Shown here piece after piece: positions 2,675 through 19,875 of a stretch of DNA of 27,282 nucleotides. Under the pieces are notes generated by a model. That model saw nothing but the letters and a program-made list of their open reading frames with translations. It was not told the DNA's origin and made no database searches. Each line of letters starts with the position of its first letter. The stretch's first letter is position 1. The stretch is from a virus: IMG/VR virus record IMGVR_UViG_3300006341_000012, positions 1 through 27,282 of that record, one strand, 5' to 3'. A program made the position numbers and the translations under genes.

Positions 2675-3550
2675 CTATTTCATCAAACTTTGAACATATT
2701 CTTTAACATCTTCACTACGCCACTCAAGATTGTTTAAGCACCAAGTTACATACCCAGAATCACTTTTTACTAATTCTCTCCAACTATTTCCTTTATGCTT
2801 ACCAAAACCCACTACATCCATTTGTTCTTCTTTCAAATGAGAATATGTAGAAAGTAGTTCCACTAAATACCCTAATTCCTCTTCATCATCAAGTTTTGCT
2901 TGGTTGACAGTGTATTGAACGTAATCGTAATCTTTTTTGATCACATCTTCCCATTTCTCATTCTTATACTTCTTTCCACCTTTACAAGTTTTCACATCAT
3001 AAAGCATTTCCCAAGCTTCATCAAGTGTTAAACCTTTATCTTTAAGCATATATTCAAGAACAAGACCATTAACCAACGTGTCGCTCTGTGCCGAATGAAG
3101 GTGTATACTGTGATCATTAAGACGTTCATCCTTATATAGTCCCCATTGGTAATACAACACTCCTAGTTTATGACTTTCCACTTCACCAACTTCATATAAT
3201 ACACGAGCAAGTTTTAGTGTACAAATTTGTCTCACATTTTCTGGAAAGTATTGTTCTGGTAAAACTTCTTTCTCATAAGATAAGTTGTGAGCAAAAACAT
3301 ATTGTTTTCCTTCCAAAGAATGATCCTTCAGAACTCTTTCTATCTTGGGAGCACTTTTAACATCTTCTTCAGTTACTCCGTGAATAGCCATTGCTTCAAA
3401 AGATATAGGTTCTTCTGGGTTAATCATTGAACCTCTTGAATCGATTACCTTAAAATCTCCATCTTTTGTGACACGGAAAATAGTTTCCCCGAACTCACAA
3501 ACTTTTCCTTTCATGCTTGTAGTTTCTGTATCAATGCTTGCTATCAACAT
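2675..3550 (-). CDS. DnaQ/ExoX-like 3'-5' exonuclease
   Basis: This 291-residue DEDD-superfamily exonuclease is expected to remove nucleotides from DNA 3' ends in replication, repair or host DNA breakdown. Visible motifs are Exo I SIDTETT (acidic residues D7 and E9), the ExoX-like AIHGVTEEDV (55-64), Exo II region FAHNLSYEKEV (86-96) and Exo III HSAQSDT with H152 and D157, the DEDDh pattern. The Exo II segment has Tyr-Glu where Phe-Asp is usual. A C-terminal segment VGFGKHKG...YVTWCLNNLEW (about 247-275) resembles the small DUF3820-type domain often joined to such phage exonucleases. AGGAGG sits 5 nt before the ATG. It is the last gene of a long leftward run. Confidence 0.85.
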   Translation of the reverse strand: MLIASIDTETTSMKGKVCEFGETIFRVTKDGDFKVIDSRGSMINPEEPISFEAMAIHGVTEEDVKSAPKIERVLKDHSLEGKQYVFAHNLSYEKEVLPEQYFPENVRQICTLKLARVLYEVGEVESHKLGVLYYQWGLYKDERLNDHSIHLHSAQSDTLVNGLVLEYMLKDKGLTLDEAWEMLYDVKTCKGGKKYKNEKWEDVIKKDYDYVQYTVNQAKLDDEEELGYLVELLSTYSHLKEEQMDVVGFGKHKGNSWRELVKSDSGYVTWCLNNLEWRSEDVKEYVQSLMK

Positions 3551-6277: not shown

Positions 6278-6508
6278 TCATATATCCCAATCCATCATTG
6301 CACAATTGATCTCTTGGCAACACTTCTCCACAGTTGCGTCATCTTCACAATGATTATATGCCATTACAAATACTTCATGTTGCAAACCATGATTTTTCAC
6401 ATAAATTAATGTATTATGGAAAGCTGCGTATTCATCTGTACCTTTGAATTTATCTTCAAAGAATTGTAGTGCATCCTCTAGTGTACCGTCATAACCTTTT
6501 CTTAGCAT
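6278..6508 (-). CDS. Hypothetical protein (76 aa)
   Basis: A small acidic protein with four cysteines or cysteine pairs in its second half (HCEDDATVEKCCQEINC), possibly metal-binding. Its start overlaps the helicase stop by 7 nt (ATGCTAA), so it should be translated with the helicase. No family recognised. Confidence 0.6.
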   Translation of the reverse strand: MLRKGYDGTLEDALQFFEDKFKGTDEYAAFHNTLIYVKNHGLQHEVFVMAYNHCEDDATVEKCCQEINCAMMDWDI

Positions 6509-7923
6509 TTATCCTCTCCTCTTAAATATTCAATAGCTTTTCTATGAGCTTTAATGTGTGTCTTGCCTGTAAGTGTATTATGAATCAATGGATACTTCAA
6601 GATAATATTATCAGGATTCCTAAAACGTGATAATGCAACATACGCCATGTTTATTCCCCAATCATTATCTTCATCCATATCAAATCCGTAATACCCTAAA
6701 TCTACAACTGTTGGTACATCTATTGACCTTCCTTGTACACGGTGTACACTAAATGCAGCAGCAACCTTAACAGGACAGCACATGGCAGTACCTACAACCT
6801 TATTATTCAAGATATCCTTCACTGTACCATCTTCAAGAGTTTCCTTGTCTAAGAAGCTCTCACGTTGCTCAAATTCAAACATTGCCACAAAGTGTGTTTC
6901 ATTAGTGGCAGGGAAACTCACCATAACCCCGTCATCAAAGCACTCTTCTATATATCCAAAACTTCCATTACTATATTCACCATCTTCTTGATTAACAAGA
7001 GTTATAACAGGCAAACCTTTCTTAAGAGTCAAAACTTCTTCTACAGGACATTCTTTCATATTAAATTGTCCTTTAACTTTAGCTCTGTATACAAAAGCTG
7101 CATTAGTGTTTGCCTCAACCGCTTGTTTGTTAGCAGCATCTACTTTTGCATTAGTGGTTGTTATAAAAGGAAGTCCTTCTGGTAAATCCCAAGTTTGAAA
7201 CTGGTTTAACCATTTTAAGCAATTTTCATAACGATCTTCTTGTCCGTAACGTAATACATCAAGACACGCTTTCATTACTTTATCATCAGTTCTTAAAACT
7301 TTTGTAAACTCATGTTGCTTAAAGTTTAACTTTTTATAAGGACTACTTTCAAATAGTAAATGAGAACCATATTTTTGCTGTAAAAAACTTTTATCTTGGT
7401 TAGATAATACAGGTAATAATTGAATATAGTCTCCCATTAGGATCAACTTAATGTTACGAGCCTTTCTTTTACCTTTGATAGGTTTATTAAATCTCTGTAT
7501 TCGTAACCTTATTAGTTCTAATTGATCTGGATTCATCATACCAGCTTCCTCAACAAGAACATATTCCACTAAATCACTTCCTGCAAATAAACCTGTGCAA
7601 TACTTTTTAACTTTAGTGATGTCTGTTGACTTATGCATACCTAAAGGAAGTGAGAATACCCTGTGCATTGTACCATCACCACCTTTGTTATTAAATAAAA
7701 TAGCATTTGCAATACCTGTTGTAGCACAAATAACTAATTTATCTTTAAGATAATTTTTCAAAGCTTCTATAACAACGCTCTTACCAACACCCGCAGGAGA
7801 GAAGCAGCAAGTGTGTGTATCCCCGTCAACAGAATCTCTGATAAAGTCTTTTTGTTCACTAGTTAAAGCAAACTTTCCATCATGTCTATAATATTCTAAA
7901 AATTCTTCTAACAGTTCGTTCAC
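6502..7923 (-). CDS. SF1B DNA helicase, Dda/Pif1-like
   Basis: This 473-residue ATP-dependent DNA helicase is expected to unwind DNA 5'-3' during phage replication or recombination. Motifs in order: motif I CFSPAGVGKS (40-49), motif Ia CATTGIAN (66-73), motif II VLVEEAGMM (122-130), motif III LMGDYIQLLPV (162-172), motif V FSVHRVQGRSID (391-402) and motif VI YVALSRFR (428-435). Motif II reads EEAG where DEAS is typical, a conservative change of the first acidic residue. The start is a GTG at 7923 with GAGGAGG 5 nt upstream. The length fits the compact Dda-like group. Neighbours are small unknown genes in the same unit. Confidence 0.9.
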   Translation of the reverse strand: MNELLEEFLEYYRHDGKFALTSEQKDFIRDSVDGDTHTCCFSPAGVGKSVVIEALKNYLKDKLVICATTGIANAILFNNKGGDGTMHRVFSLPLGMHKSTDITKVKKYCTGLFAGSDLVEYVLVEEAGMMNPDQLELIRLRIQRFNKPIKGKRKARNIKLILMGDYIQLLPVLSNQDKSFLQQKYGSHLLFESSPYKKLNFKQHEFTKVLRTDDKVMKACLDVLRYGQEDRYENCLKWLNQFQTWDLPEGLPFITTTNAKVDAANKQAVEANTNAAFVYRAKVKGQFNMKECPVEEVLTLKKGLPVITLVNQEDGEYSNGSFGYIEECFDDGVMVSFPATNETHFVAMFEFEQRESFLDKETLEDGTVKDILNNKVVGTAMCCPVKVAAAFSVHRVQGRSIDVPTVVDLGYYGFDMDEDNDWGINMAYVALSRFRNPDNIILKYPLIHNTLTGKTHIKAHRKAIEYLRGEDKC

Positions 7924-12473: not shown

Positions 12474-13193
12474 TTAGTTTTCTTTTTCTAAGGAAGAGTC
12501 TAATATTTCTATAACTTCGTTTAATTTAGAATTAAGAAGTAACTCACTACTTCCATAATGTTCTTTTGGTCTGTAGTTTTTAAAAATACAAGAATCATTC
12601 ATACCTACCAACATTTGCTCTGTACTATACACAACAGAGTGTGTTCCTGAGTACAAACCTATTTGAGTAACCTTTGTATCTTCACCTAAAACCTTTTTTA
12701 TTCTGCTAGTGTTCTCTTTTAATCTCTTATCTGGATAAAATGTCCTTCCTACTTTGAAATAATCTGCACCTTCAATATCTAAAATATACATGTAATCTTT
12801 TTCACAAAGCTTATTAAGGTAAAGACCTCTTTTGTTTATATTACCACCACTATCAATATCATCTCTATAAAATACAAGATCGAACTCAGAATCTTCTGGC
12901 CTAAACACTAACTTATTTTTCTTTTGACCAACACCTTCTTCTAATTTTATAAAACCTATACCTTTTAATATTTCATCAGGCTTGTTTTTAGACTTACCTT
13001 TAAATAACTCTTTTGTTTTTCCTATTCCTGTGGCAATTTGATTCCAACTTTGGTGACATACTCCATTTTCTGAATTAATCCTCATGTACAGGTAAACTCT
13101 TAAAGCAGTATCGGTGAAGGTGTAAACTTCATTTGTTGTTTTATTTTCTATCTTAGCTACAGATATTAAAGTATTTACATCATCTTCTAACAT
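12474..13193 (-). CDS. Winged-helix / GIY-YIG (T5orf172-type) fusion protein
   Basis: The 239-residue protein has two parts. Residues 25-100 look like a winged helix of the replication-initiator or DnaD type (FTDTALRVYLYMRI, then CHQSWNQIATGIGKTKE as recognition region). Residues 134-220 match the T5orf172/Mug113 branch of the GIY-YIG nuclease superfamily: YMYILD, FKVGRT, R158, E192 within STEQMLVG, and ending in an SSELLLN helix. The catalytic pattern seems intact. Its ATG overlaps the TAA of the polymerase-like gene (TAATG), with AAGGAG inside that gene, so the two proteins are made together. A role in replication initiation, DNA nicking or target DNA cutting is inferred. Confidence 0.7.
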   Translation of the reverse strand: MLEDDVNTLISVAKIENKTTNEVYTFTDTALRVYLYMRINSENGVCHQSWNQIATGIGKTKELFKGKSKNKPDEILKGIGFIKLEEGVGQKKNKLVFRPEDSEFDLVFYRDDIDSGGNINKRGLYLNKLCEKDYMYILDIEGADYFKVGRTFYPDKRLKENTSRIKKVLGEDTKVTQIGLYSGTHSVVYSTEQMLVGMNDSCIFKNYRPKEHYGSSELLLNSKLNEVIEILDSSLEKEN

Positions 13194-14485
13194 TAACTCT
13201 CCTTTTCTATTTTACAATTATCGTTAAATCCTAACACATGTTCATAAGCTTTAAACATTGTAGATTTTAATTCTTCTTCATATTCCTCAATAACAGAAAA
13301 ATCATCATGCGTTTGTATTACAAGTTGATTATGGTTTTGCATCATGTAATCTAATACATAATCATTAACTGCAGATCCTACATTTTGAACCTGTAACCCT
13401 TTTGCACTAAAAAACAAGTTATTTATAATATAATGATTTTCTGTAACAACCTCGATAACCCAACTAACAGGTATTGTTTTATCAGGTATTTTACCTTTCT
13501 CGTATAATTCATTTATCTTTAAGTTATCAGATAAAGCTTTGTTTATAGCTAACTTAGCATCATTTTCACTATCTACATTCAAGCATATTATGATAGCAAG
13601 TTTGGCAATCTTCCTAGCTATGTCTGGATCATATCTCTCATTTATCAATTCTGGTATACGATAAGGATCATCCATTTCCATTATTTCTTGGTTCATGCTA
13701 TATGCTAGGCTTACCTCAAAACCTTTATAATCATAACAAACCACTTTCTTACCCTCAATTTCAACACTTGTTCTATCTTTTGAAGATAATCGTTGATATT
13801 CACAATTCATGTGTGACCTTCCTCCGTGATTGAAGTCTGTGTTGAATATCTTATAAATCTGAGTGTCTAGTTTATCACCTTTAAACCTTACGTCTTTTGT
13901 TCTTGAAAAACTGTTATATCTCTCTAAGAAGTCTAATATACCTTCTTGTTGGTGTGTCATGGAAAACTCCTCTGAATACTTACTCTTACTGTCTCTTAAA
14001 ATCAATACATCTTCTAGTTTATCAAATACCTGTTTTGGTTTTACATATCTAGTATACAAGTCTTTTAACCTTTTTTCAGGCTTGAAGTAACTGTTACTAA
14101 AACTAACAGGTGTCCACTTTCCCTTTATCATTTGGTAGTCTTCTATCTCTCCTCCAGTGGTTAATTCTCCATAAGAGTTTTGATGTAAGAAGTTGTAAAG
14201 AGACTTAGTGTATTGGTAACTAACTTTTCTTTTTGTGTTTTTACCATTCACAACTCTTGATTTACTGTAAGAGTTTTTAGATAAAGTTACTCCAAAAGCT
14301 TTTTTATTTGATAACATGTTTTTATTAAAGTTAAGAACAAAGCAACCAACAGCTCCTTTTGCAATGTTTATTTTATTATTAGTAATCTTATTGTAATTAA
14401 TAGATAACCAATCAAGATATTCTTTAAGGATCATGTCCCTAAATTTAGTTAAATATCTTGGAATTTTGTGGTCAATAATGTACAT
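13193..14485 (-). CDS. Divergent single-subunit polymerase-palm-like protein
   Basis: The 430-residue protein contains what look like the palm motifs of the family-A DNA polymerase / T7-like RNA polymerase fold. These are GGRSHMNCEYQRLSSKDR (221-238), VVCYDYKGFEVSLAYS (248-263, motif A with D252), ARKIAKLAIIICLNV (290-304, motif B-like Arg/Lys helix), and VIQTHDDFSV (389-398, motif C with HDD). Similar arrangements occur in poorly studied proteins of bacterial mobile elements. No 3'-5' exonuclease or primase motifs are seen. It begins a leftward unit with the winged-helix/GIY-YIG gene. The start at 14485 is uncertain, because the nearest GGAG precedes another, out-of-frame ATG. Polymerase activity is inferred. 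Confidence 0.6.
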   Translation of the reverse strand: MYIIDHKIPRYLTKFRDMILKEYLDWLSINYNKITNNKINIAKGAVGCFVLNFNKNMLSNKKAFGVTLSKNSYSKSRVVNGKNTKRKVSYQYTKSLYNFLHQNSYGELTTGGEIEDYQMIKGKWTPVSFSNSYFKPEKRLKDLYTRYVKPKQVFDKLEDVLILRDSKSKYSEEFSMTHQQEGILDFLERYNSFSRTKDVRFKGDKLDTQIYKIFNTDFNHGGRSHMNCEYQRLSSKDRTSVEIEGKKVVCYDYKGFEVSLAYSMNQEIMEMDDPYRIPELINERYDPDIARKIAKLAIIICLNVDSENDAKLAINKALSDNLKINELYEKGKIPDKTIPVSWVIEVVTENHYIINNLFFSAKGLQVQNVGSAVNDYVLDYMMQNHNQLVIQTHDDFSVIEEYEEELKSTMFKAYEHVLGFNDNCKIEKES

Positions 14486-14619: not shown

Positions 14620-14648
14620 AAAAAGGTATCATAGTAGGGACTACTACC
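14620..14648 (-). terminator. Probable rho-independent terminator
   Basis: Minus strand: GGTA-GTAG-TCC-CTAC, a 5-nt bulge, then TACC (14625-14648), followed by five U. A further hairpin CCGC/GCGG precedes it (14648-14661). It lies 29 nt after the 14677-14865 gene and would end the leftward unit starting at 16.26 kb. Confidence 0.6.
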
Positions 14649-14676
14649 GCTATATTGCGGAATATAATCTCTTAAT

Positions 14677-18557: not shown

Positions 18558-18609
18558 GCTGCAGGAAACACCTCACTTGCAGCTTACCCACTCTTAATTA
18601 ATGAGGTGT
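18558..18609 (+). promoter_or_regulatory. Alternative RNA stems covering the endonuclease start
   Basis: GCTGCA/TGCAGC (18558-18563 with 18578-18583) competes with ACACCTCA/TGAGGTGT (18568-18575 with 18602-18609). The second stem would bury the ATG at 18601. A translational block of this kind is known for T4 homing-endonuclease genes. Confidence 0.45.
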
Positions 18610-19875
18610 GTAAAGTTTGAGGTGTTATTTTTGAGACGTAATATATACAGTTACGATTATTTGAAAAAGTTTGAAGTTAACCAAGATAGTTCTAGGAGAA
18701 AATTTAAAACAGGACACAGAAGTGGAACAGTGTTTCTTATGTTTCCAGTTGACATACCAGAATCTAAGACGGCTAACTTATGGGCAGCTAAGTGTATCTG
18801 TGGCAACTATTTTACTTGTAATGCATCTGCCGTTATGAGAGGTGGTACTAAGAGCTGCGGTTGCTTATCTACTCGAAGGAACTCTCTTAAGTACAAATTA
18901 GAGGCCATAAAAGGGGCTAGAATAAATAACTACGAGATAAGAAGTTTACCTACGGAGTATAAAAGCAGAGATATAAAGCTTACATGTAAGGTATGTAATA
19001 CTTCTACAGAAAAAGGTAATCTTACAGAGCACCTGATGGAAGGAAGAAAATTCTGCAAGTGTTCTCATGTCTATAAAAGAACTTTTGAGGAAGTTAAAGA
19101 AGATTGTCATAAATATCTCAGAGAAAATCCCTTATCCCCTTGGAGAATAGAAAGTTTCCCCGAAGAATTTACATATGTCCGTGATTATAGGATAAACCTT
19201 GAATGTAAATTATGCGGTCATAAAGTGGATATGTTGTTTGGAAACTTTGTAAGAGATAAGGGTTGTCAAGGATGTTTTGATATTAGAATGTCAGAACTTA
19301 AATCTAAAGACTTATCTTACTTTTTAGAAAAGAGTTTTGAAAAACACGGTGACAGGTATGATTATAGTAAGGCAGTTTACACAAAATGTAGAGAGCCTTT
19401 AGAAATTGTCTGCAGAGAGCATGGAAGTTTTTGGCAATCACCTGACAATCATTACAACAAAGGAAAAGGTTGCAAGAAATGTAACGGTAATAGGTATGTA
19501 AACTTTAAAAGGGTTTCTATAGACGATAATAAAGACCTGCTTAAGAGTAAACCTTCAGGAGTGTATATTCTCAAATCATCTGTAAACACTGAAATGTATA
19601 AAATAGGTATAAGTGTTAAACCAGAAGCTAGGTGTAGAGATGTTAGTAATGAAAGTGGATTAGGTTTTAGTGTCATAAAGTATGAAGAGTTTAATATGTA
19701 CGATGCTTATGTATTAGAAAATTTACTACATAACAGATTTGATGAATTTAACTGCAGGGAAAGCTTTCAAAACAAATTTGCTGGATACACAGAATGCTTT
19801 TTACTGAAAGAAGAACATTTAAATAAAATTGATGAAATAATAACTGATTTTAAAAGAGGTGAAATTAATGAGTAA
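18601..19875 (+). CDS. GIY-YIG (T5orf172-type) homing-endonuclease-like protein with zinc fingers
   Basis: The protein is 424 residues long if started at ATG 18601. Four zinc-ribbon-like modules come first: CIC...CGC (65-88), CKVC...CKC (129-154), CKLC...CQGC (202-225), and CREHGSFWQSP...CKKC (271-294). The last, preceded by KHGDRYDYSKAVY, is a repeat known from phage homing endonucleases. A C-terminal GIY-YIG domain of T5orf172/Mug113 type follows: VYILKS (321-326), YKIGIS (333-338), R344/R346, E373. It probably recognises DNA with the fingers and cuts with the GIY-YIG domain. TTG at 18631 with GAGGTG 6 nt upstream is an alternative start. Its end overlaps the terminase start (ATGAGTAA), so it is inserted between the terminase genes and carries the terminase ribosome binding site. 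Confidence 0.8.
   Translation: MRCVKFEVLFLRRNIYSYDYLKKFEVNQDSSRRKFKTGHRSGTVFLMFPVDIPESKTANLWAAKCICGNYFTCNASAVMRGGTKSCGCLSTRRNSLKYKLEAIKGARINNYEIRSLPTEYKSRDIKLTCKVCNTSTEKGNLTEHLMEGRKFCKCSHVYKRTFEEVKEDCHKYLRENPLSPWRIESFPEEFTYVRDYRINLECKLCGHKVDMLFGNFVRDKGCQGCFDIRMSELKSKDLSYFLEKSFEKHGDRYDYSKAVYTKCREPLEIVCREHGSFWQSPDNHYNKGKGCKKCNGNRYVNFKRVSIDDNKDLLKSKPSGVYILKSSVNTEMYKIGISVKPEARCRDVSNESGLGFSVIKYEEFNMYDAYVLENLLHNRFDEFNCRESFQNKFAGYTECFLLKEEHLNKIDEIITDFKRGEINE

What the first reader, a model, noticed from the sequence alone, without database searches (positions are those of the whole stretch)
12474..14485. Operon of a divergent polymerase-like protein and a winged-helix/GIY-YIG fusion
The 430-residue protein has motif-A, -B and -C-like segments (D252, R291/K295, HDD 393-395) of the family-A/T7-RNAP palm but is much shorter than known phage polymerases. 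It is translationally coupled to a protein joining a replication-initiator-like winged helix to a possible nuclease domain. Together they could be an initiator-nickase plus primer-making or gap-filling polymerase, an undescribed replication or mobile module.
Basis: inference. Interest (0 to 1): 0.7.

Follow-up and report, generated by a model that had tools for sequence, protein, structure and literature searches.

The report
Compact phage polymerase beside replication origin
A family of small polymerase-like proteins, filed so far as unknown, is shared by cholera phage ICP1 and its marine relatives, and in ICP1 its gene lies where genome copying was seen to start, so it may help start phage DNA replication.

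Summary
In detail: two minus-strand genes overlap at TAATG. The 430-aa protein is phrog_4756, unknown function. Its predicted fold has a family-A/T7-RNAP-type palm and fingers (Z 15.0 to yeast mitochondrial RNAP, 14.8 to a Pol A enzyme). Catalytic positions D252, R291, K295 and D394 are invariant in 29 of 29 relatives. It has no visible thumb and carries a winged-helix-like N-terminus.

The proposed partnership fails. The downstream gene is not a conserved neighbour. [quoted passage not shown]).

All 82 ICP1 records carry exactly one of two forms of the polymerase, about 21.5% identical, swapped as one cassette at one locus. In ICP1_2006_E that gene spans 58,951-60,618, where published read depth puts the bidirectional origin ("near the 60 kb position"). 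A published review says ICP1 is not predicted to encode an RNA polymerase and that its replisome is not fully characterised.

Best reading: an origin-bound, primer-making or start-up polymerase (0.4). Rivals: a compact RNA polymerase or an accessory DNA polymerase. No activity has been shown.

The parts
13193..14485 (-). 430-aa winged-helix + palm polymerase-like protein (phrog_4756, clade I)
13970..14485 (-). residues 1-172: N-terminal part, winged-helix-like in the model
   Evidence: no Foldseek match at E<=0.001; Z 5-6.2, mostly winged-helix chains
13196..13891 (-). residues 199-430: palm/fingers part
13817..13825 (-). G221-G222-R223, GR motif upstream of motif A
   Evidence: R223 28 of 29
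13730..13732 (-). D252, motif A aspartate
   Evidence: 29 of 29; strand 246-253 in the model
13601..13615 (-). R291-K295, O-helix motif B
   Evidence: both 29 of 29; helix 287-303 in the model
13301..13309 (-). H393-D394-D395, motif C turn of a beta hairpin
   Evidence: D394 29 of 29; strands 390-392 and 395-399
14632..14660 (.). two adjacent dyads upstream of the gene (CCGC-GCGG and TAGTAG-GGA-CTACTA); the second recurs upstream of this gene in near relatives
   Evidence: role unknown
12474..13193 (-). 239-aa Odn-like nuclease gene, overlaps gene 1 at TAATG; probably a separate mobile or anti-satellite gene
12483..12821 (-). T5orf172/GIY-YIG-type nuclease part of gene 2 (residues 125-237)
   Evidence: phrog_681 8.1e-12

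Best explanation
The 430-aa protein is a compact nucleotide polymerase: a winged-helix-like DNA-binding N-terminus joined to a stripped-down family-A/T7-RNAP-type palm and fingers, without a recognisable thumb or exonuclease. Most likely it acts at the start of phage DNA replication. The winged helix binds a site beside its own gene, and the palm makes a short primer (RNA, DNA or mixed) or a first stretch that opens the origin; the phage's own full-length Pol A and helicase then take over. Shown: the fold (predicted), the strictly kept catalytic residues, the separate full-length Pol A in most of these phages, the coincidence with the mapped ICP1 theta origin, and the cassette swap at that locus. 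Inferred: DNA binding, primer synthesis, the nature of the nucleotide, and dependence of the origin on this gene. Gene 2 next to it is an Odn-type origin- or site-directed nuclease that sits there independently.
For: Palm/fingers fold: AF2 model, mean pLDDT 78.8 and about 90 over residues 241-430. Foldseek found 44 PDB chains at E<=0.001; by their titles these are Pol A-family polymerases. VIA gives Z 15.0 (yeast mtRNAP), 14.8 (apicoplast Pol A) and 13.8 (T7 RNAP) over residues about 150-430. Catalytic columns are 29 of 29. N-terminus: best VIA rows are mostly winged-helix chains (CodY, MarR/PadR types, ribosomal eS10/eS19 types), weak at Z 5-6.2. A separate Pol A: 15 of 17 family-bearing records match PF00476 at E<=0.001, 13 of 17 over the cut-off (N4 and T7 in that search were controls). 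Position: in ICP1_2006_E, ORF100 lies at 58,951-60,618; read depth 8 min after infection peaks 'near the 60 kb position', taken as the theta origin (PMC7145576, passages; strain). Swap: 39 records with one form and 43 with the other make 82 of 82 ICP1 records. The two lists share no accession (compared by eye), and flanks are 98-99.8% identical around a 2.4/3.3-kb cassette. Swapping an initiator together with its own origin would look like this.
Against: No biochemical evidence. In 11 complete phage genomes the global GC-skew minimum does not lie at these genes beyond chance (p 0.38). No convincing iterons lie in the 20 intergenic stretches tried. 13 of 20 records carry two copies far apart, so not every copy can sit at one origin. 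The swapped ICP1 cassettes also hold a Mom-family gene and lie by a C5-methylase, as a defence hot spot would. The '60 kb' peak was read from text, in 1-kb bins, from an engineered strain whose reference coordinates I did not see. Profile comparison with Pol A or RNAP sequences is not significant.
Confidence: 0.4

Rival explanations
1. A compact single-chain RNA polymerase that transcribes phage genes, like a shortened N4 RNAP II or T7 RNAP.
For: Fold score tied with mitochondrial and T7 RNAP. Y275 (29 of 29) and M at K295+4 (13 of 29) match the 9 ssRNAPs aligned here (Y 9 of 9; M 8 of 9). None of 17 family-bearing records has a canonical ssRNAP over the cut-off. Two copies in 13 of 20 records could be early and late enzymes. 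A hairpin lies upstream of 10 of 12 clade-I genes against 138 of 576 background ORFs (related rows). The ICP1 review leaves expression control unexplained.
Against: Motif A has E, H or W where all 9 ssRNAPs have G, and Q or another residue where all 9 have H. No search for a gp15-like partner was made. A promoter-specific enzyme could hardly be replaced by a 21.5%-identical form in otherwise 98% identical genomes unless its promoters lie in the cassette. The short upstream dyad motif occurs once per genome in the genomes with it.
Confidence: 0.22
2. An accessory DNA polymerase for repair, gap filling or bypass, or part of a defence or counter-defence locus, unrelated to initiation.
For: Foldseek's best matches are Pol A-family DNA polymerases. 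E257 at D252+5 resembles the Pol A steric gate (recalled) in 9 of 29 rows. ICP1 neighbours include Mom-family and C5-methylase genes, and the locus is variable.
Against: Winged-helix-like N-terminus instead of exonuclease or thumb; position at the mapped ICP1 origin; every ICP1 record keeps one form (82 of 82), more than an optional gene would.
Confidence: 0.23
3. A sequence-specific DNA-binding regulator or structural protein with a relict palm and no catalysis.
For: No activity known; motif C histidine lost in ICP1 form I (Y) and 1.161 (F).
Against: Both aspartates, R291, K295, R238 and Y275 are 29 of 29 across rows only about 20% identical.
Confidence: 0.07
4. The reader's module: gene 2 nicks as an initiator and gene 1 extends.
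For: Overlapping genes.
Against: Gene 2 is not next to gene 1 in any other locus read; it is an Odn homologue; different nuclease-type genes occupy the same junction elsewhere.
Confidence: 0.03

Closest known systems
Family A DNA polymerases (PF00476; e.g. apicoplast Pol A, Bst/Taq Pol I)
   Same: Palm, O-helix R..K and HD hairpin; bulky residue at motif A D+5; Q before the last helix-hairpin unit
   Different: No PF00476 match in 13 of 13 members; no thumb or exonuclease seen; no aromatic at K295+4; N rather than Y at R291+12 in 23 of 29
T7-like single-subunit RNA polymerases, incl. N4 RNAP II gp15/gp16
   Same: Same fold class (Z 15.0 and 13.8); D-x-Y after motif A; size like gp16 (404 aa)
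   Different: No motif-A glycine; GR motif and motifs A-C in one 430-aa chain, while N4 splits them over two; winged-helix-like N-terminus
phrog_4756
   Same: The window protein and all 12 other members of A1 match it
   Different: PHROGs gives no function; one BFVD family member bears the name 'DNA polymerase'
Odn (ICP1 Gp88), origin-directed nuclease, for gene 2
   Same: Initiator-like DNA-binding part (DUF6945) plus T5orf172 nuclease, homologous over 193 aa
   Different: Only 24% identical; sits behind gene 1, not in the gp88/CRISPR locus; target unknown

Membership tests
Family A DNA polymerase | Palm with motif A and C aspartates | tested here: met
   Predicted fold; D252 and D394 29 of 29
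Family A DNA polymerase | O-helix R...K plus aromatic and YG (positions recalled) | tested here: not met
   R291 and K295 29 of 29, but K+4 is M/L/I/T/V and R+12 is N23 Y5 F1
Family A DNA polymerase | Matches Pfam PF00476 | tested here: not met
   No PF00476 match for any of 13 members at E<=10
Family A DNA polymerase | Thumb domain | tested here: inconclusive
   Only residues 150-430 are matched; the N-terminus resembles winged helices weakly
T7-like single-subunit RNA polymerase | Motif A D-x4-G (SG.Q) | tested here: not met
   G in 9 of 9 ssRNAPs; H18 E9 W2 here
T7-like single-subunit RNA polymerase | D/TxxGR | tested here: inconclusive
   GR kept (R223 28 of 29); R-4 is D in 10 of 29, else N/K/E and others
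T7-like single-subunit RNA polymerase | Motif C HD and motif B R...K...Y | tested here: inconclusive
   HD 27 of 29 and R/K 29 of 29, but Y at R+12 in only 5 of 29
T7-like single-subunit RNA polymerase | NTP-dependent RNA synthesis from a promoter | not testable with these tools
   Needs an assay
Odn-type origin-directed nuclease (gene 2) | RepA_N/DUF6945-type DNA-binding part plus T5orf172 | tested here: inconclusive
   Homologous over both parts; DUF6945 0.0097 is below the curated cut-off; nuclease by phrog_681 8.1e-12
Odn-type origin-directed nuclease (gene 2) | Cuts a satellite's replication origin | not testable with these tools
   No satellite or target known for this phage

The most novel reading that the evidence does not exclude
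phrog_4756 is a new class of replication starters: an origin-binding winged helix fused to a minimal family-A-type palm that makes its own primer at the theta origin of ICP1-like phages. It exists in two ancient, interchangeable clades that the phages swap as initiator-origin cassettes, perhaps to escape origin-directed nucleases such as Odn.
Probability: 0.25. Interest if true: 0.85.

Novelty: new variant of a known kind. Interest (0 to 1): 0.62.

Why it matters
ICP1 is the main studied phage of epidemic cholera. Its review says the full replisome is not characterised and that it is not predicted to encode an RNA polymerase. A conserved palm polymerase at its mapped origin, present in one of two forms in 82 of 82 records, gives a concrete gene to test for how replication starts. 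It would also be a very small family-A-like polymerase, with all motifs in about 230 residues.

Tried and rejected
Canonical ssRNAP or N4 gp16 orthologue: rejected as membership because of motif A; profile-profile scores were weak for both polymerase families (E 0.0025 to RNAPs at motif C, 0.024 to Pol A at motif A, for single comparisons). One search was a first run of that comparison with a wrong alignment option and is discarded.

Origin by GC skew: tested on 11 complete genomes, negative. Iterons: nothing consistent (six of the 20 stretches had a direct repeat reached by at most 3% of 60 shuffles, with no shared sequence). Rfam near the gene: nothing above gathering score. Close relatives in bacterial genomes and plasmids: none found; these scans reach close relatives only.

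Hairpin count: one search computed a chance value for 10 of 11 clade-I genes because I left out the first copy of 2L372X, which has none. The right count is 10 of 12 clade-I and 2 of 9 clade-II rows of the 21; the rows are related, so I quote no probability. My note says 14 of 20 records have two copies; the table gives 13 of 20, and several records there are near-duplicates.

Not searched for: a gp15-like partner subunit. Absence from print: 'gp100' with ICP1 gave one unrelated paper, 'ORF100' gave 0 occurrences in the five papers listed of 34, and searches gave nothing on this protein in their listings; most subscription papers are not held.

Full report
OBSERVATION. The window is a 27,282-base virus record. 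Gene 1 (13193-14485, minus) and gene 2 (12474-13193, minus) exist as described and overlap at TAATG with an AAGGAG-type ribosome site. Gene 1 matches phrog_4756, function unknown, over its whole length at 6.5e-113, and nothing convincing in Pfam. tblastn finds relatives in 204 phage records: Rheinheimera 115, Vibrio 69, Aeromonas 14, Pseudoalteromonas 4, Pseudaeromonas 1, Shewanella 1. None was found in plasmids or, at close range, in bacterial genomes.

WHAT GENE 1 IS. In 29 aligned relatives (some near-identical), R238, D252, Y275, R291, K295 and D394 are invariant, R223 is 28 of 29 and H393 27 of 29. D252 ends a strand, R291/K295 lie on one long helix, and HDD sits in the turn of a beta hairpin followed by a helix. 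Foldseek's 44 PDB chains at E<=0.001 are Pol A-family polymerases by title. VIA ties a mitochondrial RNAP (Z 15.0, rmsd 3.7, 256 aligned) with an apicoplast Pol A (Z 14.8, rmsd 3.7, 234 aligned), and T7 RNAP gives 13.8; all cover about residues 150-430. In the viral library the 11 best are about 400-450 aa long and far ahead of the next, apparently family members (the named ones among them are Rheinheimera and Aeromonas phage proteins); one is named DNA polymerase. The N-terminal 172 residues, folded alone, give no Foldseek match at E<=0.001. Their best VIA rows (Z 5.0-6.2) are mostly winged-helix chains, which suggests but does not prove a winged helix.

DNA OR RNA POLYMERASE? Motif A carries H18, E9 or W2 at D+5, where all 9 aligned ssRNAPs carry G; the position of the ssRNAP histidine before motif C is mostly Q (24 of 29). 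On the other side, Y275 (29 of 29) matches the ssRNAP D-x-Y (9 of 9), and K295+4 is M in 13 of 29 (ssRNAPs 8 of 9). So it fails a defining feature of each family and is best called a divergent relative of both. Sequence profiles do not decide. 15 of 17 family-bearing records have a separate Pol A match at E<=0.001 (13 over cut-off), and none of 17 has a canonical ssRNAP over the cut-off.

COPIES AND CLADES. 13 of 20 records hold two copies. The tree has two deep, well supported clades of 14 and 13 rows. Six of the two-copy genomes in the tree have one copy in each clade (2L372X, 5P1c, R16F, G001, G002, G003); J2-1 and 11895-B1 have both in clade II and G007 both in clade I. PH357's second copy is in clade I; its first was not a row, but it is 64% identical to the window protein.

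ICP1. The ICP1 gene exists in two forms: a clade-I form (434 aa) and ORF100 (555 aa, clade II), 21.5% identical over 404 columns. 39 records have the first and 43 the second; 82 records have the nearby gp112 gene, so 82 of 82 carry exactly one. Between isolates the swap replaces one block (2.4 kb against 3.3 kb) inside flanks 98.2-99.8% identical. In ICP1_2006_E, ORF100 lies at 58,951-60,618. In the same isolate (engineered to lack CRISPR-Cas) reads 8 min after infection peak 'near the 60 kb position', interpreted by the authors as a theta origin (PMC7145576, passages read); the review places it between tail and capsid modules (PMC9040626, section 7 read). The passages I saw do not mention the gene. 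This coincidence was found after the fact and rests on one phage.

GENE 2. It aligns with ICP1 Gp88/Odn over 193 residues (24%, E 4e-9), covering both the DNA-binding part (DUF6945: 4.9e-35 in Odn, 0.0097 here) and the T5orf172 nuclease part. Odn binds and cuts satellite origins (PMC8263062, passages), and such chimeras arose repeatedly (PMC10448857, passages). The junction behind gene 1 holds other genes elsewhere: a GIY-YIG protein in R16F, AP2-type proteins in HM1 and J2-1 (both below the Pfam cut-off), a C5-methylase in one ICP1 form, and genes without a Pfam match in five others (10 tested). So gene 2 is most likely a mobile or anti-satellite nuclease that landed there.

UPSTREAM ELEMENT. 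Two adjacent dyads lie 147-175 bases upstream of gene 1 (14632-14660). The second (TAGTAG-N3-CTACTA type, with matched changes on both arms) lies upstream of this gene in the window, L002, L015, L016, PH357 and HM1. The pattern occurs once per record there, and once elsewhere, in eugene. A stem of at least 6 with a 3-4 base loop occurs within 250 bases upstream of 10 of 12 clade-I and 2 of 9 clade-II genes, against 138 of 576 background ORFs. The rows are related and a dimer's operator would show the same symmetry, so I draw no mechanism from it.

VERDICT. The palm is well supported; the partnership is not. A start-of-replication role is the best single explanation, at 0.4.

Noticed in passing
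window 18601-19875 (+): Second T5orf172-type nuclease (Pfam 7.7e-10) with HNH-like and zinc-ribbon profile matches (phrog_559, DUF4379 weak); probably a free-standing homing endonuclease just before a gene that looks by eye like the terminase.
   Followed up: no
window 2675-3550 (-): DnaQ-type exonuclease with an ExoX-like C-terminal element (Pfam 2e-9 and 8.9e-9).
   Followed up: no
window 6502-7923 (-): Dda/PIF1-like helicase (phrog_325 6.8e-81).
   Followed up: no
window 14632-14660: Tandem dyads upstream of gene 1, conserved with paired changes in near relatives; could be an operator, an origin element or a hairpin promoter.
   Followed up: partly
L176:13107-13688: ICP1 ORF102, inside the swapped cassette, matches the Mom DNA-modification family (1.6e-32).
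   Followed up: no
L012:5170-6687 and W10:37002-38276: The eugene 12A10 homologue is annotated as 505 aa; the matched frame is 680 aa with one TAA inside the stretch.
   Followed up: no
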